NCBI GenBank assembly: GCA_021464415.1
Contig: CM038467.1
Location: forward strand, 67,833,159 to 67,897,158
DNA length: 64,000 nt
Source: Lonicera japonica
Taxonomy: Eukaryota > Streptophyta > Magnoliopsida > Dipsacales > Caprifoliaceae
Direction of reading: 5' to 3'
Both the position numbers and the translations under genes were made by a program. The notes beneath the pieces were generated by a model. It saw only the letters and a list, made by a program, of their open reading frames with translations. It ran no database searches and had not been told where the DNA came from. This document shows positions 1 through 62,315 of the stretch, in pieces. The first letter of the stretch is position 1. Every line of letters starts with the position of its first letter.

Positions 1-1185
1 AATCCGCAAATGCGACCCCCGGGTCTCGTCCCCGTTCGGTTGGGCGTCTGAAACGTCGGAATGGATTCCTTCGTTTCATTTGCTGGAGTTATTTTCGTTG
101 ATTCATTCATATCATGTGTCCCTATGTTCTATTTCTAGATGCAAGAGGGTTCGTTTAGAGTCGCCAGTACGTTTTACGAGAAAAACGGACAAAAACGTTT
201 GTGTAAGAAGAAAGGCTACAGATAAGCCTTTCTTTACACGTTTGTCTACGAAACCAGGATTCTATAAGGCTCGAAACTATATTAACGGTTTGGGAAGGTG
301 TTAAGCACCCATTCCGCCCTTTCGGTCTCTAGTGGTCTTTTTATATGTTTATTCTATTTGAAAAACTTGGATGCTTTTACCGACAGTCTACTACTTTCTA
401 AGTAAAGACCCCAATTCTTGGGAAAAAAGGGAAAAAGGGATGAAGACCTTGTATTCCGAGATCCGATGTTTCGTTTTGAGAAATGCAAATACAAGTGACA
501 AAAAATCATTTTTCTTTAGAGAAGGAGTTTCTCGTATTATTTCTCGGATAATGACGGTTTTCTCGGGTTTTGACTTGTTTTGGAAAAGTTCAAATCTTTT
601 AGTGGAACTAATTCAATATGGAATTGGAACTCTTGAGAGGGGTTCTCCCGGACGTACCACAATCTATGAAACAGATAGGATATACTGGGTTTTTAATTCC
701 TAAGTAAGTTTTACCGGTTCGGGTTTTGAAAACGGGATTTTATCCGGATGGTAATGCACTTACTCTTCTGGTTTTGCAAATGGTTTTATCAGGGTCTTTT
801 GTTTTGAAAACGATAGACTATTTGTAACTTGACAATAAGTTTATTCAAATAAAATGTGGACAAAACAACAGAAGTGAAACAAATACACGGATATTTAATG
901 TTAAATGCTAGAAGAGACTTTCTTTACCTTCCCGACGAGAATAATAATAAGAAAGAAAATATAATCCGGCGGAGAGATTTCCGGCGATAACAATCTTTTT
1001 CTTCTTTAAATTTTTTCGAGAATTCGATTCCAGAGACGGGACACGCCGAGTGTCGGGAATAGATTCGATGATTCTTCAGAAATAAGACGATAATAGAGAA
1101 TGTTTGATGAAAGACTAAAAAAACAGATTTAAAGCTAGAATCTTCAATCCTAAGTTGCTGCCTTGAACCCTTGGGGGTGTTGGCC

Positions 1186-1193
1186 TATTTATA
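1186..1193 (-). promoter_or_regulatory. TATA box of the 3' LTR
   Basis: The minus strand reads TATAAATA, 15 bp downstream of the nearest TGTCGCGCGACA palindrome. The same box is conserved in the right LTR (19947-19954) and in the solo LTR (61125-61132). Confidence 0.75.
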
Positions 1194-1208
1194 CTGCTCG
1201 GGGAAGAT

Positions 1209-1416
1209 TGTCGCGCGACACTTCTCCAAAAGGGGCATATGTCGCGCGACACAGAGGTGATTGTCGCGCGACAAACGGCTGAAGTGATGTTTCTGACAGA
1301 CTGATTAGTCAGAGAGTGGATGGTCGGGGTTAGAGGGGTTTGTCGCGCGACACAGAGGTGATTGTCGCGCGACATATCAGTGATTGCCGCGTGACACACT
1401 GATATGTCATGCGACA
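1209..1416. promoter_or_regulatory. Array of seven TGTCGCGCGACA palindromes in U3
   Basis: Five perfect 12-bp palindromes start at 1209, 1240, 1262, 1341 and 1363. Two degenerate ones start at 1385 (TGCCGCGTGACA) and 1405 (TGTCATGCGACA). Start-to-start spacings are 31, 22, 79, 22, 22 and 20 bp, so most are about two DNA turns apart. The array sits directly upstream of the LTR TATA box on the transcribed strand. The degenerate copies differ mainly by changes expected from deamination at CpG. A role as a transcription-factor binding array is inference. Confidence 0.8.
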
Positions 1417-1557
1417 ATCCCTCTTAAAAGCAGGTTTGTTAGCCAACAAACCCTTTTGGGGTAGTTTCGGGTGCTCGGGTGGGTCCCGAACTTCAAAAAT
1501 AGTAGTTCTCGTAGGTCGTTAGGGTTCTTGCGGGGGTCACGGATCGGGGTGTCTACA

Positions 1558-3432: not shown

Positions 3433-3515
3433 TGTCGCACGACACCTCGGGAGAGGGCTCTTTGTCGCGCGACAAAAAGGCTATATGTCGCGCGACATAT
3501 TGCTCCATTATATAA
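3433..3515 (+). promoter_or_regulatory. Promoter of antisense PMD gene: palindromes plus TATA
   Basis: TGTCGCACGACA (3433-3444), TGTCGCGCGACA (3463-3474) and TGTCGCGCGACA (3486-3497) are followed after 11 bp by TATATAA (3509-3515). A long CT-rich tract of the plant Y-patch kind then leads to the ATG at 3765. The same palindrome-then-TATA order occurs in the LTR and before the second antisense gene. Promoter function is inferred from this arrangement. Confidence 0.65.
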
Positions 3516-3690
3516 CCCTCTTTGCTGAGCTCATTCCACCTCATTCTCTCCTTTCTCTTTCTCTCTCTAGCTCTCTTTCTCTCTCTTTTGCGCGACATAT
3601 TGCTCCATCATATAACCCTCTTTGCTGAGCTCATTCCACCTCATTCTCTCCTTTCTCTTTCTCTCTCTAGCTCTCTTTCTCTCTCTTTTT
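3491..3690. repeat. 100-bp tandem duplication of the antisense core promoter
   Basis: The segment starting CGCGACATATTGCTCC at 3491 repeats at 3591 with exactly 100 bp period and almost no change. Each unit holds half of the palindrome, a TATATAA-type box (second one near 3609-3615) and the CTCTCT tract, so the core promoter and leader are doubled. Confidence 0.9.
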
Positions 3691-3764
3691 CTCTTCTCCC
3701 AAGTGCAGAAGCCCTGCCGCTTTTCCGACTTTTCCGACTTTTCTGATATTTTACTCATACTCAG

Positions 3765-6700
3765 ATGGATCCTGCCTAGCCAGATCGACTCGAGGGTGAC
3801 CAGGAGGAGGTCACCTTTACCGACGCTCAGGGCGTTCTCCGCTGCAGTCCTCATCATGATGATTGGGAGGACTTGGATTGGTATAGTGAGGATGGGGTGG
3901 ACCGCGGTCGAGCGGTGGTCTACCGAGAAGGGACCCGGGCTGCTCCAGTTCCGGACGTTCCGTGGCTCTTGATGGAGCCTGTCTCTCACGAGATCCGTCG
4001 TCGATCTCTGGTATGTCTTCTTTTCGTGTTTTTTTATCTGTTCGGTTACTTTTGTCGTTTCCTGCATGTATTTTAAACAAAGTTTAGTATGCATGACTAG
4101 AAATAATGCCTGATTTTAGCGAACACATACTTTTACCTGTGATACCTCTTAGGTTTTTTAAAAAACTACATAATGTACCCTCCTAATCCCATAACCCTCA
4201 TAACTTTCATAATTCACAACAAAGTACCCTTAGGTTTGGAAAATTACATAATTTACCCTTATAACCCTATAACTCTCATATTTACACCAAAGTACCCTCA
4301 GGTTTGGAAAATTACATAATTTACCCCTATAACCCTATATCTCTCATAATTACACCAAAGTACCCTCAGGTTTGGAAAATTACATAATTTACCCTTATAA
4401 CCCTATATCTCTCATATTTACACCAAAGTACCCTCAAGTTTGGAAAATTACATAATTTACCCTTATAACCCTTATATCTCTCATAATTACACCAAAGTAC
4501 CCTCAGGTTTGGAAAATTACATAATTTACCATTATAACCCTATATCTCTCATATTTACACCAAAGTACCCTCATGTTTGGAAAATTACATAATTTACCCT
4601 TATAACCCTATAACTCTCATAACGACAATAAAGTACCCTCAGGTTTGGAAAATTACATAATTTATCCTAATAACCCTATAGCTCTCATAATTACACCAAA
4701 GTACCCTCAGGTTGGAAAATACATATTTACCCTTTAACCCTATATCTCTCATATTTACACCAAAGTACCCTTAGGTTTGGAAAATTACATAATTTACCCT
4801 TATAACCCTTATATCTCTCATAATTACACCAAAGTACCCTCAGGTTTGGAAAATTATATAATTTACCCTTATAACCCTATATCTCTCATATTTACACCAA
4901 AGTACCCTCATGTTTGGAAAATTACATAATTTACCCTTATAACCCTTATATCTCTCATAATTACACCAAAGTACCCTCAGGTTTGGAAAATTACATAATT
5001 TACCATTATAACCCTATATCTCTCATATTTACACCAAAGTACCCTCATGTTTGGAAAATTACATAATTTACCCTTATAACCCTATAACTCTCATAACGAC
5101 AACAAAGTACCCTCAGGTTTGGAAAATTACATAATTTATCCTAATAACCCTATAGCTCTCATAATTACACCAAAGTACCCTCAGGTTTGGAAAATTACAT
5201 AATTTACCCTTATAACCCTATATCTCTCATATTTACACCAAAGTACCCTTAGGTTTGGAAAATTACATAATTTACCCTTATAACCCTTATATCTCTCATA
5301 ATTACACTAAAGTACCCTCAGGTTTGGAAAATTATATAATTTACCCTTATAACCCTATATCTCTCATATTTACACCAAAGTACCCTCATGTTTGGAAAAT
5401 TACATAATTTACCCTTATAACCCTATAACTCTCATAACGACACCAAAGTACCCTCAGGTTTGGAAAATTACATAATTTATCCTTATAACACTATAGCTCT
5501 CATAATTACACCAAAGTACCCTCAGGTTTGGAAAATTACATAACTTACCCTTATAACCCTATAACTCTCATAATTACACCAAAATACCCTCATGTTTGGA
5601 AAATTACATAATTTACCCTTATAACCCTATAACTCTCATAACGACACCAAAATACCCTCAGTTTTGGAAAATTACATAATTTACCTTTATAACTCTATAA
5701 CTCTCATAATTACACCAAAGTACCCTCCGATTTGGAAAATTACATAATTTACCCTTATAACTCTCATAATTACACCAAAGTACCCTCAGGTTTGGAAAAT
5801 TACATAATTTACCTTTATAACCCTTATATCTCTCATAATTACACCAAAGTACCCTCAGGTTTGAAAAATTACATAATTTACCCTTATAACCCTATATCTC
5901 TCATATTTACACCAAAGTACCCTCATGTTTGGAAAATTACATAATTTACCCTTATAACCCTATAACTCTCATAACGACACCAAAGTACCCTCAGGTTTGG
6001 AAAATTACATAATTTATCCTTATAACCCTATAGCTCTCATAATTACACCAAAGTACCCTCAGGTTTTGAAAATTACATAATTTACCCTTATAACCCTATA
6101 ACTCTCATAATTACACCAAAGTACCCTCAGGTTTGGAAAATTACATAATTTACCTTTATAACCCTTATATCTCTCATAGTTACACCAAAGTACCCTCAGG
6201 TTTGGAAAATTACATAATTTACCCTTATAACCCTATATCTCTCATATTTACACCAAAGTACCCTCATGTTTGGAAAATTACATAATTTACCCTTATAACC
6301 CTATAACTCTTATAACGACACCAAAGTACCCTCAAGTTTGGAAAATTACATAACTTATCCTTATAACCCTATAGCTCTCATAATTACACCAAAGTACCCT
6401 AAGGTTTGGAAAATTACATAATTTACCCTTATAACCCTATAACTCTCATAATTACACCAAAGTACCCTCAAGTTTAGAATATTATATAATTTACCCTTAT
6501 AACCCTATAACTCTCATAATTACACCAAAGTACCCTCAGTTTTGGAAAATTTCATAATTTACCCTTATAACCCTATAACTCTTATAATTACACCAAAGTA
6601 CCCTCATAATCCTGTATTCGTTCCTTTTTGTTTGCAGTGGGTTGGCCGTGGTTGGGGTTCTCCTAACACCATTTCTTTAGAGTGGCGACAGGCACCGGCT

Positions 6701-9179
6701 CCTGTTTAGGAGTTGCTTCTCGCGACTCATTTCGGCTCTCTCTTCGATGCCCTCCCGGAGCGGGTATCTAGGGCAGCTGTGTTGGTGTCAGCTCTGGCCT
6801 GTCACTGGTGGGACACCACTCACACTTTTCACTAGAGCTGGAGGGAGATGGCGATGACCCCCCTCGACTTATTCGCTTTGACCGGGATTCCTTCAGGGGG
6901 TCCCTATACAGATCGATGTCCCCTTGTGTCTAACAGCAGAAGGCATTGTCGGTGCATTAGGATGGTTTTCGGAGCGACGGAGTTCTGGTGATACGATTCC
7001 TCGGGCCGTCTTAGTTACTCGGCTAGCCACAGAGAGAGCTCGATTAGTTGCCTCAGGAGCGCCGATGACCCGCCAGGAGGCACGCCAGTATGCTCGCGTT
7101 CTTCTTCTACTGACGCTCCATGATCTATTCGAGGCCCGTGGGGGGGACACGACCCATCTATGGTGGCTGCCCTATCTCCGGGATTTTAGTATCATGTTCG
7201 ACTATGATTGGGGCAGTTTTATTCTTGCCGTCCTCTATGATGCTATGGACCAGGTTTCTCGCCACTTAGCCCTGAACCTTAAGGGCTTTTCTCTGCTATG
7301 GGAGGTATATACCTTTGTTCCCTTATCTTTGTTCCAGTTCTTTACTTTTATTTGTTGATTGTTGCTGATATTCTTTGTGTTTCCTCTTCAGAGTTGGTTT
7401 GTGGTGTATACTCGCTTGGGTCGCGCCTAGGTAGATCTCCTCGTCGAGAACGAGGATCAGTTCCATTTTCTCCGTCGATTCATTGCGGGGAACTACAGGG
7501 CTCCCTACGTATACCGGACTCGGAAGACCGGAGCTGCTGCTGTTTATGACCTGTTGGAGGAGCAGGTAAATATCTTAGTATTCTTTCTTTTTCATAAATA
7601 AATTGTGAATAAAATATAAATAACTGAAACAAATTCTTGTTCTCCTTATAGATTGAGTGGGCCCCCTGGGGTGATATGGGTCTTTATTTTGGATATGGCC
7701 GTGCTCTAACTGCCTCGAGGACCAGGCGACTGATTAGGGATGAGTACGGCCTTCACTTTTACTTAGGCGAGAGAGTTATTCGCCAGCACACACTGGCCTA
7801 GTGGCCTCGAGTTCCACTATTTCCCCCGATTTTAATGAGGCGGACGGGCGAGATTGATCTGGTGACGGTGCAGGCCTTGGTGGATGGTCTTGGCTTTCAG
7901 ACGTTCACTGAGGAGGGAGACTACGCCACTTTCGCTTCATGTTACTTGATGAGGGAGTCGAATGGGACTCGGGGACGGGTCTTCTACGAGAGATATCGGG
8001 CGTTGGGAGGTGATCCCCATTATATACGAGGACAGACCCATCTAGCCAGGACGGTTCCGGGTCACCCGCCCCCTGTCCCTGATCAGATGGACAATATTTT
8101 GGACTCTGGTGATGATGATCCTGAGGGAGAGAGGGACGTCCATGCTGGTGCTGAGGGAGGCGATGATAGGCCCGAGGGTGGTGAGGGAGGTGGAACAGCG
8201 GCTGTTCCAGAGGAGCCTTCTCAGACGACGCCTAGAGAGGAGCAGCCTGCTGAGGGTTTTGAGTTCCCCACCGGTCCATCGGTATCTCCGGGGGTAGTTT
8301 CTGAGCGGTCCTGGGAGCCTGCGGACTTCGGGGTCGACTATGAGCAGTTCGGGAGGACTTCTCCTGCTGCGGCGACCACTCCTTCTAGTGGAGTACCTCC
8401 TTTGAGGGCGACGGCCATGGAGGATCCTCCCGGTGTCCGTACCTACGCCACGCTGACTCCTCTTCTGACGACTGCTATGGGGCCTCCAGCCCGATCTCTA
8501 GGTTTTGGGGGTTCTTCATCTTGGCCTTCCTTGTTCCCGATCCGCGAGGAGGGGGGGTCCACTTCCGCTGATGTTCCGGTGGGGCCATCCATTCCTTGGG
8601 TAGATCTACCCCCATTCCCTAGAGATATTTCTTATGTCGGCGCTGGTTTGCGTCGATACACGGTTCCTGAGTATCCTCTTCTTGAGGATACTTTTGACTA
8701 CTTGGGGGGCGCCCTGGTGACGAGGTACTTTCTTGATCTTCTCTTGATTTTAACTGTACTTATTTATTCTCTTGACTGTGCTGATTCTCTTGTCTTATGT
8801 CTTTTTTCAGCGGGTGAGTGTACGGGTGGCGGATCTGCGAGCTTGGCACGCCCAGTACCTCTACAGCTGAAACCTGCTCCAGTATGTCGGTCGAGACCCT
8901 CCAGCTTATATGCGTGACTACCAGAGGGCTATCGACGTCTCCTTGCGGCCGGACGACCCCCTGACTTCTTCTCGTGCTCGGACAGAGTCTCGGAGGAGTA
9001 GCAGTCGGACCTCCAGGCGTTCGTGGTCGTCAGTGATCCGTCCTACGACTCCTATCCAGTCGACGGGGCCTTCCCAGGCGGTAGTTCCTCCTGTTCAGGG
9101 TGTCCCAGTGGTTGATCTTACTCCCGAGGAGGGCTCGGGTGAGAGTGGGAGTGTGTCAAAACGCTCTCGAGTATATTAG
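3765..9179 (+). pseudogene. Antisense spliced gene for plant mobile domain (PMD) protein, broken
   Basis: Five exons can be read by splice sites and frame: 3765-4010, 6638-7304, 7392-7565, 7652-8724 and 8811-9179. The first three introns are GT-AG and phase 0; the phase at the last junction does not fit, so an indel is likely there. The protein has an acidic N-terminus, then PMD hallmarks: THTFH-SWREM and PLDLFALTGIPSGG (exon 2), ARVLLLLTLHDLF and WLPYLRDFSIMFDYDWGSF, then YGRALTASRTRRLIRDEY and YLGERVIRQH (exon 4), followed by a Pro/Glu-rich and Ser/Arg-rich tail. PMD is known from transposons and from host silencing factors such as Arabidopsis MAIN and MAIL1. In-frame stops: TAG at 3777, 6707, 6833, 7428, 7799 and TGA at 8868; one 1-base loss in a G-run near 6896-6900. 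It lies on the strand opposite gag-pol, between integrase and 3' LTR. A role against host silencing would be inference. Confidence 0.8.
4150..6610. repeat. AT-rich 68-bp minisatellite filling intron 1 of the PMD gene
   Basis: About 36 tandem units of 68 bp, each with AAAGTACCCTCAGGTTTGGA and AATTACATAATTTACCC. A marked variant with CATAACGACA recurs at about 4619, 5092, 5435, 5637, 5969 and 6311, that is every 3, 5 or 7 units, showing higher-order amplification. The array starts 140 bp after the donor at 4011 and ends just before the acceptor at 6637, so it makes up nearly the whole intron. ORFs within it are artefacts. Confidence 0.93.
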
Positions 9180-9526
9180 TTTTTTTCTTTCTGCATTTTT
9201 GTTAGTTCAGACAGATATGTATTTATTTTTAGATATGCATAGACAGATTATGTAGTTTTTTGAAAACTGTTCTTTTATTGGATTTTATGAAAATCTTTAT
9301 TTGTGTCTGATGATATATACTATTATTCTCTGTCTGTGAAAGATATATATACACACATATATATATATGAGTCAGTGATTTAGAAGCCATACCTTGTAGT
9401 GTAGTGACATTTAGGTTTCCTGCAAAAGAACAAAGTGAGGACAAGAATGCATCCAGAAGTAATTCTTTTGGCAAGAATGACTCTTATGTGAAAGGAAAAC
9501 AAAAATAGGGTGGCCCTAAGTGGGTT
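9180..9526. other. AT-rich spacer between the two antisense genes
   Basis: T-rich sequence with a TA microsatellite at 9343-9368. It holds the presumed 3' end of the PMD gene and the upstream region of the next one. No gene is seen. Confidence 0.5.
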
Positions 9527-9604
9527 TGTCGCTCGACAATCCCTCCTGGGCATGGGTTTGTCGCGCGACAAACAGGCACAGGACCTTCCTTTTTTGCTAT
9601 AAAT
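9527..9604 (+). promoter_or_regulatory. Promoter of second antisense gene: palindromes plus TATA
   Basis: TGTCGCTCGACA (9527-9538) and the perfect TGTCGCGCGACA (9559-9570) are followed after 27 bp by TATAAAT (9598-9604). The ATG is 40 bp further at 9644. This is the third place in the element with palindromes directly upstream of a TATA box. Confidence 0.65.
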
Positions 9605-9643: not shown

Positions 9644-10900
9644 ATGTCTTTTTATCGCACAACATCTAATTTTTCTTACATTAATGCCCGAGATGCTCTG
9701 ATATCTTCTGAAAATGGTCTGAATTTTGGTGCATTTAGCTCTTTAGCGGGCTGGTGCCATCGTCCCGTCGATTTTTCCTTTATGTTAGCTGCTTTGTATT
9801 TCTAGAGTCCTGCGGACCATCTCTTCCGCTTTGGACTAGATGAGCTCTGTTCGACCTATGAGGAGTTCTCCTGGCTGTTATGTTCTGACGTTCGTCTCCC
9901 AATGGAAGTTCTCATGGAAGAAATCGATCCTCGCGATATGCTGATTGCTCTTTTAGCCATTCCCCAAGCGGCCTGTGATGGTTTTATTACCGACGGACTC
10001 ATTGACCTCCATAAGATGGTGAGGTTCTTTCATCATTACGAAGATAAAGCCTCTTATAGTGTGGGGCGAACTGCGGCGGCTTTGATCTGTCTTGTTTCGG
10101 ATATGTTACTGGTGACGGGCTCTTCTCGTGTTAATCCGACTATTCTAAATTTGATCTACCATGCTAGGAATGGGGAGTCCATAGTGCCCATCGTTCTTGC
10201 AGAGACTCTGAATGGTCTAGATGATATTCAAATGGGGGCCTCACCCTTCTTCAGAGGAAGTCCGCGTTTGCTATACATGTGGCTGTTGGAGCGTTTCTGA
10301 TCGGTGGGTTTCAACGGGGTTCGGCTCGACAACCCGACACACTTCCTCTATTGTCCTCTCTTCGGTGCTTTGACCATGTCTTCCTCTGATTGGACGGTGT
10401 GGTTTTTGGAAAACTTTCGTGCCATTCGGTGGAACATCCCTTGGTGGAAGTTGAGGTTGATGGTGCTTAGTACTGGAGGTCAGAACTACGTTCGGCTCCG
10501 CGGGCTCTGGTTTACCTCCTTTTATCTCACAGGACGTCTTCTTCGGCAGTTTAACGTTCCTCAAGAAATTCCCCTTGGTCTGAACAACTTCTCCCCTGAG
10601 TCCAAGTTTGTGACCCCGCACGTTTCTTCATCAGTAGAGAGGATGTGGCGTGCTCGGCTGACTCGGCAGTTCAACTATGCCTATTTCGGTATTTTCAGGC
10701 CCCTTCGGGCTGACATTATTCGCTCTTGCTGGCGATCTCTAGAAGAAGAGCTGATTGATGACCCCTTTCAAATGGAGTGGTTCCGATTCATGAATTTTGA
10801 GCCTACAGAGGATAACATTGTCTTTGCGTATCAAATCCTGGACGAGGCTCGAATTGATTTGGCCACCGAGGACCTGGTGTGGCTAACCCCTAGGGATTAG
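9644..10900 (+). pseudogene. Second antisense ORF, mobile-domain-like transposon protein, broken
   Basis: One frame is readable from ATG 9644 to the stop at 10898-10900 (about 418 codons) with only two internal stops, TAG near 9803 and TGA at 10298. Visible segments include SIVPIVLAETLNGLDD, SPRLLYMWLLERF, WNIPWWKLRLMVL and a closing YLTGRLLRQFNVPQEIP. This order (a block near 'LAETL', a 'LYMWL' block, a W-rich block, then R-RQF-x-QxIP) resembles accessory ORFs of plant gypsy elements related to PMD or DUF7745 proteins. That assignment comes from memory of the motif pattern and is tentative. The gene faces integrase tail to tail, 214 bp apart, and has its own palindrome/TATA promoter. AATAAA near 10973 could serve as its poly(A) signal. 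Confidence 0.6.
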
Positions 10901-11114: not shown

Positions 11115-12434
11115 CTATTGATAATACTTCTTCAGTCGGTCCATGTTGACTGGTGAATGCAGTAATTGCCCGTCTAAGTCAGCGAGTATAGCGGCACCCC
11201 CCGTATCAATTTCCTTGACGATATATGGCCCTGCCCACTTCTGCCCGAACTTACCCCTTGGATCTCTGGCTGGCTCTCGAATTTCTTTCAATACGATGTC
11301 GTTCTCATTGATACCCCGAGTCTTTACTTTCTGGTTAAATGCTCGAGCGATTCTCTTCTGATACCCTTGGTGGTGGTATGCGGCTTTCAATCTCTTCTCA
11401 TTTAGTAGGGCTAGCTCGTTATGACGTGCCTGGACCCACTCCAGTTCATTGACTTGATTTTTTAGTATTACCCTGAGAGAGGGGACCTCTAATTCAACAG
11501 GCAGGACTGCTTCCATTCCGTATGTAAGAGAGAACGGGGTTGCCCCGGTGGAGACCCTCTCAGTGGTGCAGTATCCCCACAATGCATATGGTAATTTCTC
11601 TGGCCAGTCCCGGCAAGTGTTGGTCATTTTTCTTAGGATATTCTTCAAATTCTTGTTGGCGGCCTCGACTGCGCCATTGGTTTGCGGTCTGTATGGCGAA
11701 GATCTGTGTCGGGTAATACCGTATTCTTCCATGACGAAATTAGCCTCCCCCTCGAAGTGAGTGTCGTTGTCCGAGATGATCTCGTGTGGGACCCCATACC
11801 GGCAGATGATGTTCCGTCGGATGAATCGGGCAACCTTTCTGGCGTCAAGGGTTTGGAAAGACTTGGCTTCTACCCATTTGGTGAAGTAGTCGATGGCCAC
11901 TAATATGAATTCATGGCCGTTGCTGGCTTTGGGTGAAATCTTTCCGATGATGTCGATTCCACAGGTTGCAAATGGCCAGGGAGCAGTCATGTTGTACAAC
12001 TCTTTCGGAGGCAATTTTTGAGATTTAGCATAAATCTGGCATTTGTGGCAATGGTGTACGTGGTTAACGCAGTCGTTCTATAGGGTAGACCAGTAATAGC
12101 CTTGCCTGATGATCTTGCGGGCAAGTGTATGGCCGCTCATGTGAGGCCCACAATCATCCCCATGTATCTGATCCATCATTTTGACGAACTTTTTTTCTGC
12201 CAGACATTAAAGATGGGTCCCGTCGTAGTTCCTCTTGTATAGCCTGCCGGCACAAAGTATGAACCCTGATGCTAATCTCCTGAGTGTGACCCGTGTCTTC
12301 TTGTCTGTTTGCTCGGGATACTGGTGATTTTTCAGCAGGTTCCAGATATCGTAAAACCAAGTGGTTGAGTCCTTATTCTCTCCATTCTCTATCTCAAGGG
12401 CCATGCAGTGTGCTGGTTCGGATTTTTTTTGCAC
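11115..12434 (-). CDS. Integrase of the Tat element (partly broken)
   Basis: The core (11115-12014, 299 codons) is open and ends HSPVNMDRLKKYYQ. It has the catalytic core start CGIDIIGKISPKASNGHEF, the second Asp region in IISDNDTHFEGE, SPYRPQTNGAVEAANKNLK with the Glu, and the C-terminal GPYIVKEIDTGGAAILADLDG. Upstream in the same frame are the zinc-binding segment (CGPHMSGHTLARKI, then HVHHCHKCQIYA) and a linker to RNase H, interrupted by stops near 12205 and 12080. Integrase inserts element cDNA into host DNA. There is no chromodomain, as expected for Tat. Confidence 0.9.
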
Positions 12435-12446
12435 TGTAAGAGTTAT

Positions 12447-13007
12447 TTATTTCATCCCCTCCGGGATATCTATCATAGATGCCAGGGTTGCTAGTGCATC
12501 AGCAAAACTATTCTGCGACCTGGGGGCATAGTAAAATTTTGCATGCTCAAATCTTCCTGCGACATCCTCCAGTCGGGTGAGGTAAGGGACTAATTTCTCA
12601 TCTCTAATCTTCCATTCCTTCAGAACTTGGTGGACCACTAGTGCTGAATCTCCGTATACCTGTATTCTTTTTATACCCCTTTGGAGTGCGATCTCCAACC
12701 TGATGATGCAAGCTTCATATTCGGCCATGTTGTTGGTGCAGAAGAAGTCCAGACGATATGATACCGGGGAGTAAGTTTGGTCTGGAGAGACTAACAGAAT
12801 ACCTATCCTGTTTCCGTTTCGGTTGGCGGCCCCGTCAAAATACAATTTCCAGTCTTCATCGACCTCGACATTCATGATAGTTTCATCTGGGAACTTGGCT
12901 TCTTCTAGCATGTCCCCCAATATCGGATTGTGGGCTAGGTAATCAGCTATGATCTTGCCTTTGATCGCCTTCTGCGTCATGTAGGTGATGTCGAATTCAG
13001 AGAGCAT
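12447..13007 (-). CDS. Second (archaeal-type) RNase H domain of Tat pol
   Basis: It contains WKLYFDGAANRNGNRIGILL, NNMAEYEACIIRLEIALQRG and IQVYGDSALVVHQVLKEWKI, giving the Asp-Glu-Asp catalytic set of RNase H. Its position between RT/RNase H and integrase is diagnostic for the Tat lineage, which carries two RNase H domains. The domain itself is open; the stop at 12447-12449 separates it from the linker to integrase, which continues in the same frame. The join to RT upstream (about 13020) needs a one-base frame change. Confidence 0.9.
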   Translation of the reverse strand: MLSEFDITYMTQKAIKGKIIADYLAHNPILGDMLEEAKFPDETIMNVEVDEDWKLYFDGAANRNGNRIGILLVSPDQTYSPVSYRLDFFCTNNMAEYEACIIRLEIALQRGIKRIQVYGDSALVVHQVLKEWKIRDEKLVPYLTRLEDVAGRFEHAKFYYAPRSQNSFADALATLASMIDIPEGMK

Positions 13008-14784
13008 GAATAACCATTTACCATACGGTTCGAGAGAGCTGGTTTCTCGAAGAGGTATTTCAACGGATCAATTCGTGATGCCTGGATGACTGGGAAAACC
13101 AGCATGTAATGTCGTAATTTCTGTGTTACCCAGACGAGAACGGTGCATGATTTCTCCAATGGTGTATAGTTTATCTCAAACGGGGACAGCTTCTTGCTGA
13201 TGTAATAGATGGCCTGCTCTTTTTGGGTATCGGTCAGGTGTTGGGCTAGCATGGCTCCTGCAGTTGAATCAATGACGGTCAGGTATAGGATTAGTGGTAG
13301 TCCGGTCTGTGGTGGGGCTAAAACTGGGGGGTTGGAAAGGTAATTCTTAATTCTGTCAAAAGCCTCTTGGCACTGCTCGTCCCATTCTCCTGGTGAAGAC
13401 TTCCTCAGGAGTTTGAAGATGGGTTCGCAAGTTTGAGTAAGCTGAGAGATGAACCTGCTGATGTACTGTAAATTTCCCAAAAATCCTCGGACCTTTTTCT
13501 CGGTACGAGGCTCGGGCATGTCTTGGATAGCTCGAACTTTGGCAGGGTCTACCTCGATCCCCTTCTTACTGACGACATATCCCAGGAGTTTTCCTTTGGT
13601 TACTCCGAACACACATTTCTGCGGATTGATTCTCATCTGATACTGGCGGAGTCGGTCAAAGAAGGCTCGCAAGGCTGGTACATGGCCTTCTCTCTCCTTC
13701 AACTTGATTATCATGTCATCCACATACACCTCTACCTCTTTGTGAATCATGTTGTGGAAGATAGCTGTGCTGCCCTCTGATACGTTGCTCTAGCATTCTT
13801 CAGCCCGAATGGCATAACGGTGTAGTAGTATGTCCCCCATGGTATGATAAACGCTGTTTTCTCTTGGTGATCCGAATGCATTTTGATCTAATTATATCCG
13901 GCGAAACTATCTACGAATGACTTCAGGGCATGATTGGCGGTGTTATCCACTATCAAATCAATGTTGGGCAATGGGAAATCGTCTTTTGGGCAAGCTTTAT
14001 TGAGATCTCGATAATCCACACACATGCAAACTTTCCCATTTGCTTTCGGGACGGGTACAATGTTGGCCAACCATGAAGGGTACTCGATCACCCACAAGAA
14101 CCCCACACTCAGTTGTTTCATCACTTCTTCTTTTACTTTCAGGGACCATTCAGGCGTAAGTTTTCTCAACTTCTGCTTAATGGGCCTAAACTCCGGCTTA
14201 GTGTGTATCTCGTGCATGACTATCTGGCTGTTCAAACCCGGCATATCAGCATAGGACCAGGCGAAGACATCCACGTACTCATTCAGAGTTTGTGTGAATT
14301 CTTCTCTTTCTGTCTCATTTAGACTTGTCCCAATACGGACCTCTTTTCTTTCCTCCTCTGTCCCGAGGTTAACCACAAGAGTGTCTCCTTCCTCGCTCTG
14401 TATACGTTGCTCCTCCCGTTCTGGGTATTCGTTTAGTTTCTCCAACTCCGTATAAGCAATTACAGAATTAAAATCAACAGGATAATGCAAAATAGAGTTT
14501 TCTTCATTGATAATAGTGTTTACAGGTACAAGTTTAAAAAGTAAATCTAGGAGTGACTCCTCCCTAGCCCTACCCTCATTCTTATCTCTCACCCTTACAA
14601 TTTCGCTCTTTCCCCCTTTGTAATTTGGATCAGTGTGTATCAAGTGTACAGGGTCGTCTCCTGGCTCATCGTCCCCTAGAGCCATGATGTCGAAGAGATC
14701 TCCAATCATTTCTTCCTCTTCCTCTTCTTTGTCTTTATTTTCTTCCCTCGACCCGATCGTTAGTTTGGTAGAGAAACTGTGCAC
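12977..14784 (-). CDS. Reverse transcriptase and first RNase H of the Tat element (frameshifted)
   Basis: Two ORFs together form the domain. 13888-14784 holds an acidic linker and the RT fingers (PEFRPIKQKLRKLTPEWSLK, SWLANIVPVPKANGKVCMCV, DYRDLNKACPKDDFPLPNID). 12977-13750 holds VYVDDMIIK with the YVDD active site, GKLLGYVVSKKGIEVDP, RGFLGNLQYISRFISQLT and the RNase H start. Between them lie a TAG at 13888-13890 (where CAG would fit) and a one-base loss near 13765-13775. The family's usual MPFGLKNA motif is visible at about 13810. The YVDD and linker Asp/Glu residues are present, but the gene cannot make a full protein. Confidence 0.9.
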
Positions 14785-15836
14785 AATGTTTCCTTGATAT
14801 AAAGGTCCTCTTCATATAAGATTTCCCATCCTGGAAGGTTCTCTCCGTCGCTATTTCTCCAGGGCTCTTGAAAGCCGCAAAAAGGAAAGTCCTCTCCTTC
14901 TTTGACGAAAAACCCATTCAGATAGCTAAAGCTCAGATACTGATGCCCTCGACTTCTTTTCTCTTGGTCGTCTTCTTTGGTGTGCTGGTACCCCAAACCC
15001 TCCTTTTCGTGCCTCATCACTAGATCTAAGGCCTGGAGTAACCCTGGCTGTCCCATTCCTAAACTGGCCCCGGGTAAGTACTTCATCATTCTCAGCATAT
15101 TGGTGATCTTGGTGTTGAGACCGGGGATATTATCAGGGGGTAGGTACTTGATTTTCTGGTTGGTGAGAGTTTGTACTTGAGACTCGTAAGAAAAGCCTCC
15201 CAGCTGTATACTCTGGCTCCCGATGCCTAATACGGGTAACTCCAGATCCGCCAAGGTCCTTTCAGGATCTCCTTGGATGGTGATTACATTCCCTTCGAAT
15301 GGTATTTTGATCTTCTGGTGTAAGGAGGAGGGGAGTGCTCCTATGTCTTGTAGCCATGCTCTTCCCAACAGGAGGTTAAAACTAGAGGGAATGTCTATGA
15401 TTTGAAAGTCGGCCGGAAAATTTCCGGAACCGACCATGAGATCAAGCCTTAGAGAACCCATAACGGCCCTCCTAGTGTTGTCATAGGCTCTACCAGTCAC
15501 AGCTAATGGGGAAAGTTCTGAGTCTAAGATACTCAGACATCTGGCGGTCTTCAGGGGGCAGACGTTTATGGTTGACCCATTGTCGATGAGGACTTGTGGA
15601 AGGATTTTCCCTCGGGTTCGGACGGTGATATGGAGGGCCAGGCTGTGTTTCCTCCCCAATGGAGACAAGTCTTCATCTGAAAATAATAGACTTCTTTGGA
15701 CTGTGAGTGACCCGATCATGTTTGGCAGTTGTTCGGGTGTGGAGTCTGGTGATATGACGGCCTCGTCTAGAAGTTTGACGAAGGCGGTCCTGTGAGGTTT
15801 GGAGGCAACCAAGAGGCCCCAAATGGTGATGTGTGC
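14760..15836 (-). CDS. Aspartic protease of the Tat element
   Basis: The open stretch 14760-15812 (350 codons) contains LALHITVRTRGKILPQ followed by VLIDNGSTINVCPL, where D-N-G-S is the catalytic loop of retroviral-type aspartic proteases. SFNLLLGRAWLQDIGALPSS further on is typical of the Tat/gypsy protease C-terminal part. It is in the same frame as gag, separated from it by a TAG at 15837-15839, and out of frame with RT, overlapping it slightly. It would cleave the gag-pol precursor. Confidence 0.88.
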   Translation of the reverse strand, partial: AHITIWGLLVASKPHRTAFVKLLDEAVISPDSTPEQLPNMIGSLTVQRSLLFSDEDLSPLGRKHSLALHITVRTRGKILPQVLIDNGSTINVCPLKTARCLSILDSELSPLAVTGRAYDNTRRAVMGSLRLDLMVGSGNFPADFQIIDIPSSFNLLLGRAWLQDIGALPSSLHQKIKIPFEGNVITIQGDPERTLADLELPVLGIGSQSIQLGGFSYESQVQTLTNQKIKYLPPDNIPGLNTKITNMLRMMKYLPGASLGMGQPGLLQALDLVMRHEKEGLGYQHTKEDDQEKRSRGHQYLSFSYLNGFFVKEGEDFPFCGFQEPWRNSDGENLPGWEILYEEDLYIKETLCTVSLPN

Positions 15837-18143
15837 CTAGGTTTTCTTCAACTGCTCAAGTACTCGATCTTCTCCTATTTCTTTAGGAGGTGGTGATTTC
15901 TCGGCATCCATCGGTGGTGGCTGGTATACCCTTCCTGAACTGGTGATTTGTTGGATCCAAAGGGATGCTGGGTCTGATCCCTCTGAAGTTTCTGATGACT
16001 CTAGCTCTGTCGACCAACTAAAAGTCCCAGGGGAGGTTTCTGTCATACAGATTGTCTCCTTCGGGGGGCCTTGGGGTTTCCATGGCTGTTTCTTCTTCTC
16101 TTAGGTCCATCATATCCCAGATTTTCTAGGATTGGTTTTGATTGTAAGTGGCTGTGGGATCCCTTGATTTGCCTTTCCTAAACCCTGCTCGGGTAGGAAG
16201 TTCATCTTAGCCATCCATTGGTCGATTATCGGATTGAGGCTTGGGGCAACTTGAGCCTTTGCTGGTAGCATAACGGGCGTCTTATAGGCTGGGTCATTCC
16301 GAATGAGTCTTATGGGGTCAAAGCCTTTTTCATCAGTGGTCAAGGCGTTAATTCCCGCAGGTGGGGCATGGTTAGAAAGTGGATTGTTGGTAACATTGGG
16401 ACCGCCGGGTGCGGGAATGGTTCCGGCTTCAATGAGGTCCTGGATACAATGGCGAAGAGCCAAGCAGCGTTCCGTGTCATGGCCCGCTGCTTGATGGTAT
16501 GCACAGTTTTCATTCATTCTCTAGGTGCTGGGAATAGGGTTTGGTGGTGGGCGCGGGTTGAGTGGAGTGATCAGTCCGGCCTTTCGGAGTAATTCCAGGC
16601 TTTTGACCAGGGTAGTGGGGAGGGTGCAGAAGTTTCTCCTCCTCTTAGCCTCGGTGTTTGAAGAGTCTCCTTGTGCAGGCCAACTCATCGGAGGGGTTTG
16701 TTGTGATTGTTGGAATGGGTTTTGTTGATATGGGTACGAGCTTAGTTGATTCACGGCTGGAGTGGCTGTCTTTCTCCCAGTGTATGAGGCTTTTTTGGTA
16801 TCTGTTTCTGCCTTCTTGGCCAGTTCTTCCTCTTCTTGCGACCCTATACTCAACAGGGCTCTGAAGTGTGGGAATACATGCCTTCCCATGCAACTCAGTA
16901 CGGTCGGGGTGAAATTCTTCTGTATGATCTCCAGCTGTTCTTCTTCATCAGGTCGCTTGGACATTTGGGAAGCCATCTTTCTCCAGCGTGTGACGAAATC
17001 GCTGAAACTCTCTTTCTCGCCCTGCTTAGCCATTTTCAGGTGTTTACGGGTTATTTCCAAATCTTTGTTGGACCCGTATTTGGCCATGAACTCCTTGACG
17101 ATATCTCCCCAAGTCTTCGTGTGGTGTCTTTCCAGATCGAAAAACCATCTCAGGGCGGCCCCCGTGAGAGTCATATGAAAGGCTTGAGCCAACTCCGGCT
17201 CCCCACAGCCTGATACTTGCATGGATCTGATGTAGGATTGAAGATGGGTTTTGGGGGGTGTGGTTCCTGTGAATTTGGTGATGGAAGGGAGCTTGAATCC
17301 CTGAGGCAGTCTTGTTTCTGGGTAGAGGGAGAAAGCATTCATATCTGTAATCTCGTCTGCCCATTTTATCAGAGAAATTCCTCTTTGCAGAACCTTCATC
17401 TGTTCTTTCAGTTTCTTCATCTCTTCGCTCTCTCTTGACGCCTCATCGGACTGTTCCCGAGCTATAACCGATTTTGCATACACTGCCCGAAGTCGATTGA
17501 TGTCTGGGTATTCATTGGGAGGGGCTACTGGGGAGGGTGGTGGAATAAGTCTTGCAGGGACTTGTGGCCATGGCTGGTATTGAGGGTCGAATCCGGGTTG
17601 TACTTGGGGTTGCGGGCAAACTATGGGTGGCTCTTGTTGCTGATAAGTGGGGCCTGAATCCGGGGCCTATTAATTCTGGTTGTTGGGATCGATTTGAACA
17701 GGACCGGCTATGATGGGACCCGTTGGTGGTGGGTTGGTTCCTTGGACCGGGGGAAGCACCTGTGAAGACTGCCCTTGGTTCGGATCTCAATTCGGTGGTA
17801 GTCGTTCAAAATCCGGTGGTGCGGCTCGTTCGGCTAACAACTCCTCTATTCGGACACGGGTATTCTGTTGCTCGTTTGTGAGGCTTGCTAGGTTCATGCT
17901 GACGGTCGTCAACAGTCGATGCATCTCGGCTAAAGTTGGCTGAACTGCAGATGCCTCGGCTAGGCTCTGATCTGTCTCTTGATTCTCACGTCCCTCGGCC
18001 ATTTCGGGTGTGCTTGGTCTTACTAGTCTTCCGGTGTGATCTCGACCGGCCCAACCTTCCAGATTGTCGTCGCTTTTCGGCTGTAGACGAAACCACGTGG
18101 CGAAGATGAAGGAAGACTGTGATGCGACTCGATTTTTTGCCAA
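15837..18143 (-). pseudogene. gag of the Tat element, interrupted by stops
   Basis: All parts lie in one frame from ATG at 18143 to the protease. The N-terminal part (17787-18143) has a coiled-coil-like EMHRLLTTVSMNLASLTNEQ, then a Pro/Gln-rich linker. The capsid part (16521-17483) has TGTTPPKTHLQSYIRSMQ, LTGAALRWFFDLERHH and ESFSDFVTRWRKMASQM. 16110-16517 holds CAYHQAAGHDTERCLALRHC, the cysteine/histidine segment of Tat gag. In-frame stops are TGA 17787, TAA 17670, TAG 17667, TAG 16521, TGA 16110, TAA 16101 and TAG 15837. Each fits a single C-to-T change in CAA, CAG or CGA. Confidence 0.85.
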
Positions 18144-18751: not shown

Positions 18752-19946
18752 CTGTGAGAATCCGCAAATGCGACCTCCGGGTCTCGTCCCCGTTCAGTTG
18801 GGCGTCTAAAACGTTGGAACGGATTTCGTCGTTTCATTTGCTGGAGTTATTTTCGTTGATTCATTCATATCATGTGTCCCTATGTTCTATTTCTAGATGC
18901 AAGAGGGTTCGTTTAGAGTCGCCATCCCTGTTTTACGAGAAAAATGGACAAAAACGTTTGTGTAAGAGGAAAGGCTACAGATAAGCCTTTCTTTACACGT
19001 TTGTCTACGAAACCAGGATTCTATAGGGCTCGGAAACTATATTATGGTTTGGGAAGGTGTTAAGCACCCATTCCGCCCTTTCGGTCTCTAGTGGTCTTTT
19101 ATATGTTTATTCTATGTTGAAAAACTTGGATGCTTTTACCGACAGTCTACTACTTTCTAAGTAAAGACACTAATTCTTTGGGAAAAAGGGAAAAAGGGAT
19201 GAAGACCTTTGTGTTCCGAGATCCGATGTTTCTTTTTGAGAAATGCAAATACAAGTGACAAAAAATCATTTTTCTTTAGAGAAGGAGTTTCCCGTATTAT
19301 TTCTCGGATAATGACGGTTTTCTCGGGTTTTGACTTGTTTTGGAAAAGTTCGGATCTTTTAGTGGAACTAATTCAATATGGAATTGGAACTCTTGAGAGG
19401 GGTTCTCCCGGACGTATCACAATCTATGAAACAGATAGGATATACTGGGTTTTTAATTCTTAAGTAAGTTTTACCGGACCGGGTTTTGAAAATAGGATTT
19501 TATTCGGATGGTAATGCACTTACTCTTCTGGTTTTGTAAATGGTTTTATCAGAGTCTTTTGTTTTGAAAACGATAGACTATTTGTAACTTGGCAATAAGT
19601 TTATTCAAATAAAACGTGGACAAAACAACAGAAGTGAAACAAATACACAGATATTTAATGTTAAATGCTAGAAGAGACTTTCTTTACCTTCCCAACGAGA
19701 ATAATAATAAGAAAGAAAATATAATCCGGTGGAGAGATTTCCGGCGATAATAATCTTTTCCTTCTTCAGATTTTTCCGAGAATTCGATTCCAGAGACGGG
19801 ACACGCCGAGTGTCGGGAATAGATTCAATGATTCTTCCGAAATAAGACGATAATAGAGAATGCTTGATGAAAGACTAAAAAAACAGATTTAAAGCTTAGA
19901 ATCTTCGATCCTAAGTTGCCACCTTGAACCCTTAGGGGTGTTGGCC

Positions 19947-19954
19947 TATTTATA
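19947..19954 (-). promoter_or_regulatory. TATA box of the 5' LTR
   Basis: TATAAATA on the minus strand, 15 bp downstream of the first palindrome (19970). It would start the genomic transcript of the element. Confidence 0.75.
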
Positions 19955-19969
19955 CTACTCGGGGAAGAT

Positions 19970-20177
19970 TGCCGCGTGACACTTCTCCAAAAGAGGCATA
20001 TGTCGCGCGACACAGAGGTGATTGTCGCGCGACAAACGGCTGAAGTGATGTTTCTGACAGACTGATTTGTCAGAGAGTGGATGGTCGGGGTCAGAGGGGT
20101 TTGTCGCGCGACACAGAGGTGATTGTCGCGCAACATATCAGTGATTGTCGCGCGACACACTGATATGTCGTGCGACA
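19970..20177. promoter_or_regulatory. Palindrome array in U3 of the 5' LTR
   Basis: Seven sites start at 19970, 20001, 20023, 20102, 20124, 20146 and 20166. Those at 20001, 20023, 20102 and 20146 are perfect TGTCGCGCGACA; the others carry one or two changes (for example TGTCGCGCAACA, TGTCGTGCGACA). Spacings 31, 22, 79, 22, 22 and 20 are identical to the left LTR. Confidence 0.8.
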
Positions 20178-20318
20178 ATCCCTCTTAAAAACAGGTTTAT
20201 TGGCCAACAAACCCTTTCGAGGTAGTTTCGGGTGCTCAGGTGGGTCCCGAACTCCAAAAATAGTAGTTCTTGTAGGTCGTTAGGGTTCTTGCAGGGGTCA
20301 CGGATCGGGGTGTCTACA

Positions 20319-24876: not shown

Positions 24877-25491
24877 TTAAGAAAAATTTAGAACAGTGCA
24901 AATACATAATAAACAAGTTAGCAAAGTATTATAACTACTCAATTCCAATTCTATAATACGAGGAGGAACAAACCTTTGTTTATTACAACAGCGAAAGATA
25001 TCCATCCCAGAGTCCCACGAATAATACAAAGCGTTGAAGTATTTTTGTATATCTTCATCTTCTTCAAAGTACAAAATTTCTACTCCACATTCCTTTATTT
25101 GTCCCTCTACTTTTGTACTAGTAGAAACAAGATTCATGTAGAAAGAAACTTCCACTTGATCGCCCTGTTTAAAAAGATTCTCCCACAACATAGAAGACCA
25201 GTGGGTTAACCACACCACATCTCCATTTACTTCGGAAATGCCGTAGCACCTTGGTTCATATTTGATCTTCGCATCGTTGGTAGTGTTCTTGATTTGAACA
25301 GATATAGGAGTTGGCATCCATTCTGTTTCTGACATTGTGTACAACAAGCATAGATTCAAGCCTCTCAATTTGAGAGATGGATGTGAAGGAACAGGGAAAG
25401 ATATAGTAGACCCTGTCGTCTTGAGGTTAAACCAGTGTGGAACTTCTCTCCCAGGAAAATATGTGCTAAATACACCAGATTCATACACTAT
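24877..25491 (-). CDS. C-JID exon of TNL copy A
   Basis: It starts after TTTTGCAG at 25492 and is open for about 204 codons. It has YFPGREVPHWFNLKTTGSTI and FPVPSHPSLKLRGLNLCLLY, the signature of the post-LRR C-JID (jelly-roll/Ig-like) domain of TNL receptors, known in ROQ1 and RPP1 to help bind effectors. CGVEILYFEED near the end is typical of the domain's last strand. The ORF ends at TAA 24877-24879; a possible donor (AAG/GTTTGT) near 24973 could give a further exon that I cannot identify. Confidence 0.8.
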   Translation of the reverse strand: MVYESGVFSTYFPGREVPHWFNLKTTGSTISFPVPSHPSLKLRGLNLCLLYTMSETEWMPTPISVQIKNTTNDAKIKYEPRCYGISEVNGDVVWLTHWSSMLWENLFKQGDQVEVSFYMNLVSTSTKVEGQIKECGVEILYFEEDEDIQKYFNALYYSWDSGMDIFRCCNKQRFVPPRIIELELSSYNTLLTCLLCICTVLNFS

Positions 25492-28274: not shown

Positions 28275-28577
28275 CTTAGTTGCCTTCCAAAATTGTTTCA
28301 AAGAGCTGTTACGCATGTCAAGAACAACCAAGTACTCTAGAGGAAAGCCATCAGGTAAAGAATTCAAACGAAAACCACGCCAAGACAACCATTTTATCTT
28401 TTTTGGTAATACCTCATATGTTCCAAAAAGTTGTATACTACTAATCTTAAGTAATCTAAGGTTGCGCATCTTTTCAAATGAATGAGTTTCCAAGACTTCA
28501 TCGCCTGAATTTCTTCGAGATTTACTCTTTTTCACCATATTCATGTTAAGGATCATACCTTCTATTCTGCTCGTACC
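28275..28577 (-). CDS. First LRR exon of TNL copy A
   Basis: It starts after TTTCTTAG as GTSRIEGMILNMN, the standard start of the exon following NB-ARC in TNL genes, and ends at AAG/GTATGA. It contains SFEKMRNLRLLKISSIQLFG and IKWLSWRGFRLNSLPDGFPL, the N-terminal LRR units. 101 codons, open, phase 0 at the start. Confidence 0.85.
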
Positions 28578-60782: not shown

Positions 60783-62315
60783 TGTAGACACCCCGATCCG
60801 TGACCCCCGCAAGAACCCTAACGACCTTCGAGAAGTACTATTTTTGGAGTCCGGGACCCACCCGAGCACCCGAAACTGACCCGAAAGGGTTTGTTGGTCA
60901 ACAAACCTGTTTTTAAGTGGGATTGTCGCACGACATATCAGTGTGTCGCGCGACAATCACTGTTATGTCGCGCAACAATCACCTTTGGCCCAGACCATCC
61001 ACTCTCTGACATATCAGTCTGTTAGAGACATCACTTCAGCCGTTTATTGCTCGACATTGGTCAACATGTCGCGCGACACTTGCCCTTTCTGGAGAAATGT
61101 CGCACGACATTCTTTCCCGAGCAGTATAAATAGGCCAACACCCCCAAGGGTTCAAAGACAGCAACTTGGAATTGGAAAATTATTGGCTTATATCTGATTT
61201 TATACTCTTTCGTCAAGTATTTTCTGTTATAATCTTATTTCTAAGGAATTATCGAATCTATTCACGACACTCGACGTGTCCCGTTTCTGGAATCGAATTC
61301 TCGAAAATATCTAAAAAAGGAATAGATCATTATCGCCGGAGATCTCTCTGCCGCATTATATTTTCTTTCTTATTATTATTCTCGTCGGGAAGGTAAATAA
61401 TATATCTTCTAGTATTTAAGTTATATATCTGTGTACTTGTTTTACTTCTGTTGTTCTGTCCACGTTTTATTTGAATAAACTTATTGTCAAGTTACAAAGT
61501 AGTCTACTGTTTTCAAAACAAAAGACCCTGATAAAACCATTTGCAAAATCAGAAGAATAAGTACATTATCATCCGGATAAAATCTTGTTTTCAAAACTTG
61601 GACTGATAAAATTATCTAGGAATTAAAATCAACATATCCTGTCTTTTTAGACTGCGACGTGTCTGATAAAACTCCCCTCAAAGAGTTCTAATTCCATATT
61701 AAATTAGTCCCGATACAAGATTCGAACTTTTACAAAAGTATTCAAAACACGAGAAAACCGTCATTATCTGAGGAAATAATACGGGAAACTCTCTCTCTTA
61801 AAATAAAACAACTTTTATCACTTGTAGTTACATCTTCCAAAAATAAAAACATTGGATCTCGAAACACAAAGGTTTTCATCCCTTTTTCCGTTTTCCCAAA
61901 AATTAGGGTTTTCTTCATTTGGGAAGTAGTAGACTGTTAGTAAAAGTATCTAAGTTTTTCAACATAAAATAAACATATAAAAGACCACTAGAGACCGAAA
62001 GGGCGGAATGGGTGCTTAACACCTTCCCAAACCGTAATATAATTTTCGAACCCTATAGAATCCTGGTTTCGCAGACAAATGTGTAAAGAGATGCTTATCT
62101 GTAACCCTTCCTCTTACACAACTGTTTTGTCCGTTTTCTCGTAAAACATACTGGCGACTTTGAACGAACCCTTTTGCATCTAGAAATAGAACATAGGGAC
62201 ACATGATATGATTTATCAACCGATTGAAGCAAATGGAACGACGGAATCCTCTCCGACGTTTCAAATGCCCAAGGACGGGATCGAAACCCGGGGGTCGCAT
62301 TTGCGGATTCTCACA
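60783..62315 (+). mobile_element. Solo LTR of the Tat family, 5-bp target duplication ATCTT
   Basis: 1533 bp, TGTAGACACCCC to TCTCACA, same family as 1-1557 and 18753-20318 but more diverged. ATCTT is present on both sides (60778-60782 and 62316-62320) and lies within the Copia reading frame, so the insertion point is exact. It arose by recombination between the two LTRs of a full element. Confidence 0.95.
60924..61132 (+). promoter_or_regulatory. Palindromes and TATA box of the solo LTR
   Basis: Perfect TGTCGCGCGACA at 60944-60955 and 61067-61078. Degenerate forms at 60924 (TGTCGCACGACA), 60966 (TGTCGCGCAACA) and 61098 (TGTCGCACGACA). TATAAATA is at 61125-61132. The spacing 60924-60944-60966 (20, 22) is kept. 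Confidence 0.75.

What the first reader, a model, noticed from the sequence alone, without database searches (positions are those of the whole stretch)
3433..9604. One 12-bp palindrome marks all three promoters of a retrotransposon, including two antisense genes
TGTCGCGCGACA occurs in the LTR U3 (1209-1416, 19970-20177), before the antisense PMD gene (3463, 3486) and before the second antisense gene (9559). In each case a TATA box lies 11-27 bp further in the direction of transcription. I saw no other clusters in the element. Sharing one operator-like site between sense and two antisense promoters suggests coordinated control, possibly by a factor encoded by the element itself, as in VANDAL elements whose VANC protein binds short repeated motifs.
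Basis: partly seen in the sequence, partly recalled or inferred. Interest (0 to 1): 0.88.

Follow-up and report, generated by a model that had tools for sequence, protein, structure and literature searches.

The report
Shared palindrome before three retrotransposon promoters
In one jumping gene, evidently from a plant, the same 12-letter palindrome is repeated in front of its predicted main promoter and in front of the predicted promoters of two genes on its opposite strand, so one protein would likely control all three; similar palindrome arrays are already known from an unrelated group of plant retrotransposons.

Summary
TGTCGCGCGACA occurs 14 times exactly and 25 times with up to 2 mismatches (0.4 expected). 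All 25 lie in the U3 of three LTRs (two of the element, plus a solo LTR that the finding does not mention) or upstream of two antisense genes (one of these is a degenerate site in a promoter duplication). Predicted TATA boxes follow the nearest site after 15, 11 and 27 bp. The element is a 20-kb Ty3/gypsy of the Tat clade, most likely Ogre. One antisense gene has a plant mobile domain and four intron-like GT-AG gaps; the other is weakly PMD/DUF7745-like. Best reading: a dyad cis-regulatory site for one dimeric factor, probably of the host, that would couple sense and antisense transcription. An element-encoded factor is possible but has no direct support; RNA hairpins/siRNA targeting and passive repeat spread are live rivals. 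A close precedent exists: Sirevirus (Ty1/copia) palindromes in U3 before TATA and before ENV (PMC2829016). What looks new is the Ty3/gypsy setting and the link to two antisense promoters. Limits: one internal copy, no transcript data, and a genome-wide search that did not complete.

The parts
18753..20318 (-). 5' LTR (1566 bp); the element lies on the minus strand
   Evidence: TGTAGACACC...TCTCACA ends; a candidate primer binding site follows, GTGGCGACTCCGCTGGGGA on the minus strand (tRNA not identified)
1..1557 (-). 3' LTR, cut by the window edge
   Evidence: aligned with the 5' LTR
60783..62315 (+). solo LTR of the same family with flanking repeat ATCTT
19970..20177 (-). U3 palindrome array of the 5' LTR, 7 sites (4 exact)
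1209..1416 (-). U3 palindrome array of the 3' LTR, 7 sites (5 exact)
60924..61109 (+). U3 palindrome array of the solo LTR, 5 sites at up to 1 mismatch, one site with 3 mismatches (61045), one position deleted
3433..3497 (+). three palindromes upstream of the antisense PMD gene
3509..3515 (+). predicted TATA box of the PMD gene (TATATAA), 11 bp after the last palindrome
3490..3689 (+). two 100-bp copies of the PMD core promoter and 5' leader, 99% identical; the second follows a degenerate site at 3586
3765..9179 (+). antisense gene with plant mobile domain, degenerate in this copy, four introns suggested by GT-AG boundaries
   Evidence: PF10536 on piece 6882-7355, below the gathering score; splice contexts
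9527..9570 (+). two palindromes upstream of aORF2
9598..9604 (+). predicted TATA box of aORF2 (TATAAAT), 27 bp after the last palindrome
9644..10900 (+). aORF2, degenerate (two in-frame stops), weakly PMD/DUF7745-like
11118..17666 (-). gag-pol remnants: gag, RT, RNase H, second RNase H, integrase

Best explanation
TGTCGCGCGACA is repeated in the U3 of all three LTR copies in the window and just upstream of predicted TATA boxes of two antisense genes of one Tat-clade retrotransposon, and it is likely a dyad binding site for one dimeric, probably host-encoded, transcription factor that would switch sense and antisense transcription together. Shown: the sites, their clustering, the lack of other close matches in the element, and their place 11-27 bp before TATA-like boxes. 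Inferred: that the boxes are used; that a symmetric protein binds; that the number of sites (7, 3 and 2) sets the strength of response; that methylation of the three CpGs in each site would block binding, so that silencing of the LTR would also silence the antisense genes.
For: 25 matches at up to 2 mismatches against 0.4 expected, none outside U3s and the two antisense upstream regions. In the 17.2-kb internal region the nearest site of each of the two clusters falls 0-40 bp upstream of a TATAWAW on the antisense genes' strand; 4.0% of positions do so counting both strands, giving 0.0016 for two clusters (the 40-bp limit was chosen after seeing the data). The 12-mer is shared where flanks mostly are not: the best 10-bp flank match between an antisense site and a U3 site is 9 of 10, for the aORF2 site 9527 (29 of 2000 shuffles reach 9 or more); the other antisense sites reach 7 or fewer. 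Sites are CpG-rich and their flanks CpG-poor: 62 of 75 site CpGs intact in 25 sites, flanks 7 CpG to 68 TpG+CpA (partly circular, as sites are defined by the motif). Between the two LTRs, site CpGs changed much like others (4 of 40 against 21 of 155 CpG columns), so the good state of the sites likely goes back to upkeep in the active lineage (inference). The solo LTR, 11-15% diverged from the other two, keeps the array. Precedent: palindromic U3 arrays before TATA in Sireviruses (PMC2829016); an antisense gene with its own promoter in Grande (PMC7264820).
Against: No transcript, binding or methylation data. The antisense promoters are seen in one element copy only. Conservation of the sites within LTRs is not shown: sites differ at 6 of 84 positions between the two LTRs against 13 of 280 in the rest of U3. 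The gaps between sites (20-23 or 30-32 bp in 8 of 9) hint at helical phasing, but after removing a duplicated gap a Rayleigh test at 10.5 bp gives p about 0.09 (statistic 2.4; 3.2 with all 9). CpG enrichment of the region marks the U3 arrays (rank 0.96-0.97 among windows of the element) but not the aORF2 promoter (0.26) and weakly the PMD promoter (0.75). No host factor for this site was identified. The same sites give strong predicted RNA hairpins.
Confidence: 0.5

Rival explanations
1. The factor is encoded by the element itself: the antisense PMD protein or aORF2 protein binds the palindrome as a dimer and feeds back on its own promoter and on the LTR, as an activator, repressor or anti-silencer.
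For: The sites sit at the two antisense genes and the LTR. Host PMD proteins MAIN and MAIL1 are needed for expression of genes that carry a promoter motif (DOWN motif; PMC7156037 and PMC9899485 passages), although direct binding is unproved there. TRP28 proteins on the antisense strand of related Retand elements are predicted to bind DNA (PMC11963269). In Sireviruses, internal palindromes were found only in elements with ENV (PMC2829016).
Against: No DNA-binding domain found in the pieces scanned; structure models unusable. The DOWN motif is not enriched here (3 one-mismatch matches, 4.3 expected). Both genes are broken in this copy.
Confidence: 0.2
2. The palindromes act in RNA: the repeated dyads fold into long hairpins in the genomic RNA, serving an RNA function or being structures that feed small-RNA production.
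For: U3 sense RNA is predicted to fold at -104.9 kcal/mol, z -10.1; scrambling the sites raises it to -65.7 on average. Both internal clusters also fold strongly, z -6.2 and -4.3. Palindrome-rich LTR regions of maize Sireviruses are small-RNA hotspots (PMC5311732 and PMC10760457 passages).
Against: An RNA role gives no reason for the internal sites to lie next to antisense TATA-like boxes. Any array of one palindrome would fold this way, so the folding does not by itself show an RNA role.
Confidence: 0.15
3. The palindromes are a passive repeat that spread by local duplication and conversion, with no shared regulation.
For: Local duplication is visible: 22-bp units in U3 and a 100-bp promoter duplication; aORF2 site 9527 shares a 9-of-10 flank with site 1 of the solo LTR's U3 and 8 of 10 with that of the other two; the same double change occurs at two different U3 sites (1385 and 19970).
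Against: The sites are found at three promoter-like places only; flanks mostly differ while the 12-mer stays; CpG-rich dyads are kept in CpG-poor surroundings.
Confidence: 0.1

Closest known systems
Sirevirus repeated motifs (RM boxes), Ty1/copia (Bousios 2010, PMC2829016; passages and section 9 seen)
   Same: High-copy palindromes in U3 upstream of TATA, with further copies upstream of a gene between pol and 3' LTR
   Different: Ty1/copia, CGG-CCG core in 12 of 13, ENV gene with no promoter conclusively identified; here Ty3/gypsy, a TCGCGCGA core, two antisense genes each with a TATA-like box
Grande gene23 and antisense ORFs of Retand elements (PMC7264820 parts 1-2 of 3, PMC11963269 parts 1-3 of 5 seen)
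   Same: [quoted passage not shown] in Grande transcribed from an own upstream promoter
   Different: No motif shared between LTR and antisense promoter is mentioned in the parts seen; Retand genes carry TRP28, which was not found here
VANDAL / VANC anti-silencing (PMC5735166 passages, PMC10398659 abstract seen)
   Same: Element-specific short motif repeated in noncoding regions, grown by tandem duplication
   Different: DNA transposon (recalled), 9-mer motif in one orientation, known binding protein
MAIN/MAIL1 and the DOWN motif (PMC7156037, PMC9899485; passages seen)
   Same: PMD proteins linked to a promoter motif
   Different: Motif CATGCAGTTT (as printed for the MORC1 promoter) is unrelated and not enriched here; direct binding unproved

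Membership tests
Ogre lineage (Tat clade, Ty3/gypsy) | second RNase H (aRH) between RH and integrase (shared with Retand) | tested here: met
   RT_RNaseH_2 at 12980-13789, RVT_3 at 12450-13067, rve at 11118-12077 (rve below its gathering score), minus strand; criterion from PMC6317226 passages
Ogre lineage (Tat clade, Ty3/gypsy) | eORF with plant mobile domain (57% of Ogre elements) | tested here: met
   PF10536, E 1.1e-5, below Pfam's gathering score (25.3 of 34.9 bits), on piece 6882-7355; of three relatives scanned, P0007 passes it, P0006 and P0008 match below it
Ogre lineage (Tat clade, Ty3/gypsy) | position in an RT tree | not tested
Retand lineage | TRP28 (PF04195) antisense ORF in 97% of clusters; LTR 315-1194 bp, internal region 7.4-12.9 kb in the recently active elements surveyed | tested here: not met
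   no PF04195 in the antisense pieces scanned; LTR 1566 bp, internal 17195 bp; ranges from PMC11963269
Sirevirus RM boxes | repeated palindromes in U3 upstream of TATA | tested here: met
Sirevirus RM boxes | CGG-CCG core, Ty1/copia genome | tested here: not met
   site TGTCGCGCGACA; integrase lies after RT and RNase H, the Ty3/gypsy order (recalled)
VANDAL / VANC system | DNA transposon encoding a VANC protein | tested here: not met
   LTR retrotransposon with gag-pol; no VANC query was run
antisense gene with own promoter (Grande gene23 type) | transcription from a promoter upstream of the antisense gene | not testable with these tools
   only TATA-like boxes and splice-like boundaries seen

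The most novel reading that the evidence does not exclude
A plant Ty3/gypsy element runs its own regulatory circuit: an antisense PMD-family protein binds an element-specific palindrome at the LTR and at both antisense promoters, so that one self-encoded factor tunes or shields all three transcription units, like a retroviral transactivator encoded in reverse.
Probability: 0.2. Interest if true: 0.85.

Novelty: new variant of a known kind. Interest (0 to 1): 0.55.

Why it matters
The function of antisense genes in plant LTR retrotransposons is called unknown in both papers on them that I read in part (PMC7264820, PMC11963269). A motif shared by the LTR and both antisense promoters gives a concrete, testable handle: which protein binds it, and whether the antisense genes and the genomic RNA rise and fall together. 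If the factor proves to be the PMD protein, it would also bear on how host PMD genes such as MAIN and MAIL1 came to act at promoters.

Tried and rejected
Genome-wide count of the palindrome: the same genome search was sent 20 times and never answered, so prevalence in the family is unknown. Pairs of exact sites 6-26 bp apart: 0 stretches in viral contigs, 4 in genome contigs, all titled as bacterial MAGs; I took these for chance from their titles and did not study them. Integrase relatives in viral contigs: 10 stretches matched a pattern, none confirmed. Protein relatives at E up to 0.001: 5 of 59 candidates for the aORF2 piece, 5 of 170 for the PMD piece, on contigs of at most 3.4 kb, no DNA context. 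Profile comparison of aORF2 with PMD pieces: no relation (probability 0.1%; different parts of the proteins). Structure models too poor (pLDDT 41.0 and 45.6), so no fold search was made. DOWN motif: not enriched. Helical phasing: not significant after removing a duplicated gap. Extended flank motif: best-oriented flank information 12.9 bits against a null of 6.6, sd 0.8, 200 draws; not used as evidence, because duplicated units inflate it and the null was oriented by a greedy, not an exhaustive, search. Auxin-response-factor, CAMTA and E2F sites were considered from memory only and not tested. Paper searches: the 12-mer gave one unrelated paper; searches on Ogre with PMD or palindromes gave lists with no title on the point.

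Full report
What is there. The window holds a nearly complete LTR retrotransposon on the minus strand: 5' LTR 18753-20318 (1566 bp), 3' LTR 1-1557 (cut by the window edge), internal region 17195 bp. Pfam finds gag and, in this order, reverse transcriptase with RNase H, a second RNase H and integrase. A second RNase H between RH and integrase marks the angiosperm Tat lineages Ogre and Retand (PMC6317226 passages). A plant mobile domain (PF10536) on an antisense piece, though below the gathering score, no TRP28 domain in the antisense pieces scanned, and sizes outside the ranges given for recently active Retand elements (PMC11963269) favour Ogre; no tree was made. The two LTRs differ at 76 of 1556 aligned positions (sum), so the copy is not recent, and its genes are broken by stops and frame changes.

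The palindrome. TGTCGCGCGACA has 14 exact matches and 25 matches at up to 2 mismatches in 64 kb, 0.40 expected for the latter. All 25 are in U3 of the three LTRs or upstream of the two antisense genes; one of them, at 3586, belongs to a 100-bp tandem copy of the PMD core promoter. Besides AT runs it is the commonest perfect 12-bp palindrome of the window. An unbiased k-mer comparison finds pieces of this same word as the only words of 9-13 bp shared by U3 and both antisense promoter regions. The third LTR, a solo LTR at 60783-62315 with a 5-bp flanking repeat, is not mentioned in the finding; of seven array positions five match at up to 1 mismatch, one has 3 mismatches, one is deleted.

Promoter position. 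From the last site to a TATA-like box are 15 bp in the LTR (counted on the sequence printed), 11 bp before the PMD gene and 27 bp before aORF2. In the internal region there are 25 TATAWAW words on both strands; 4.0% of positions have one 0-40 bp downstream. The ATGs lie 267 and 73 bp after the last sites. The PMD gene has four GT-AG gaps, and the similarity of relatives ends at the second donor in the three of five that reach it (P0006, P0007, P0009; FSLLWEV). Introns on this strand would survive in an element whose genomic RNA runs the other way. This supports, without proving, a separately transcribed antisense gene.

Is it kept by selection? Mixed. Sites are CpG-dense (62 of 75 site CpGs intact, 25 sites) within CpG-poor flanks (7 CpG to 68 TpG+CpA), though sites are chosen by their motif. 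Between the two LTRs, site CpG columns changed at 4 of 40 and others at 21 of 155, as neutral decay after insertion would give. Between the 3' LTR and the solo LTR, non-CpG site positions changed at 2 of 38 compared with 32 of 246 in the rest of U3, too few to be decisive. Overall, site divergence between the two LTRs (6 of 84) is not lower than in the rest of U3 (13 of 280). The U3 arrays stand out for CpG content, the aORF2 promoter does not.

How it may work. The symmetric 12-mer, its number and its place suggest a dimeric DNA-binding protein acting on three promoters. I commit to a host factor as most likely, because LTRs are described as recruiting host transcription factors through such motifs (ONSEN and HSFA2; PMC12786077 passage) and no DNA-binding domain was found in the pieces of the antisense products scanned. 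A self-encoded factor stays open. RNA hairpins are a serious rival: the U3 array folds with z -10.1, the internal clusters with z -6.2 and -4.3, and palindrome-rich Sirevirus LTRs are small-RNA hotspots (PMC5311732, PMC10760457 passages). What RNA folding does not explain is the place next to antisense TATA-like boxes. Passive spread explains some features (22-bp units and the 100-bp duplication; one shared flank; the same double change at sites 1385 and 19970).

Known or new. Palindromic repeated motifs in U3 before TATA, with further copies before a gene between pol and the 3' LTR, were described for Sireviruses, and called absent from the other Ty1/copia elements compared (PMC2829016). An antisense gene with its own promoter was described for Grande (PMC7264820). 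I found no report of a motif shared by an LTR and antisense promoters, but this rests on ten paper searches in an open-licence library and on papers seen in part. So I call it a new variant of a known kind.

Limits. One internal copy, three LTRs, no plant genome searchable, no expression or methylation data, species unknown; that it is a plant is inferred from the Tat-type pol and the plant mobile domain.

Noticed in passing
62930-62967: TGTAGTCGACTACA occurs twice exactly, 24 bp apart, in a remnant that reads like the end of a copia RNase H (my reading; no such Pfam match) followed by a coding stretch near 63423-63827 with a weak Transposase_32 match; it recalls Sirevirus palindromes before ENV.
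   Followed up: partly
1385 and 19970: The same two-base change appears at different U3 sites of the two LTRs (site 2 of one, site 7 of the other), suggesting conversion between sites.
   Followed up: no
4191-6606: The first intron-like gap of the antisense PMD gene is filled by about 36 copies of a 68-bp tandem repeat.
   Followed up: no
1745-2613: Tandem repeats with units of 33, 44, 97, 141 and 29 bp near the 3' LTR; about half of the Retand elements surveyed in PMC11963269 have arrays between pol and 3' LTR.
   Followed up: no
24946-32016 and 39992-52194: Long direct repeats 15 to 21 kb apart, 87-98% identical, probably other repeated elements.
   Followed up: no
60783-62315: Solo LTR of the same family, with flanking repeat ATCTT.
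   Followed up: yes
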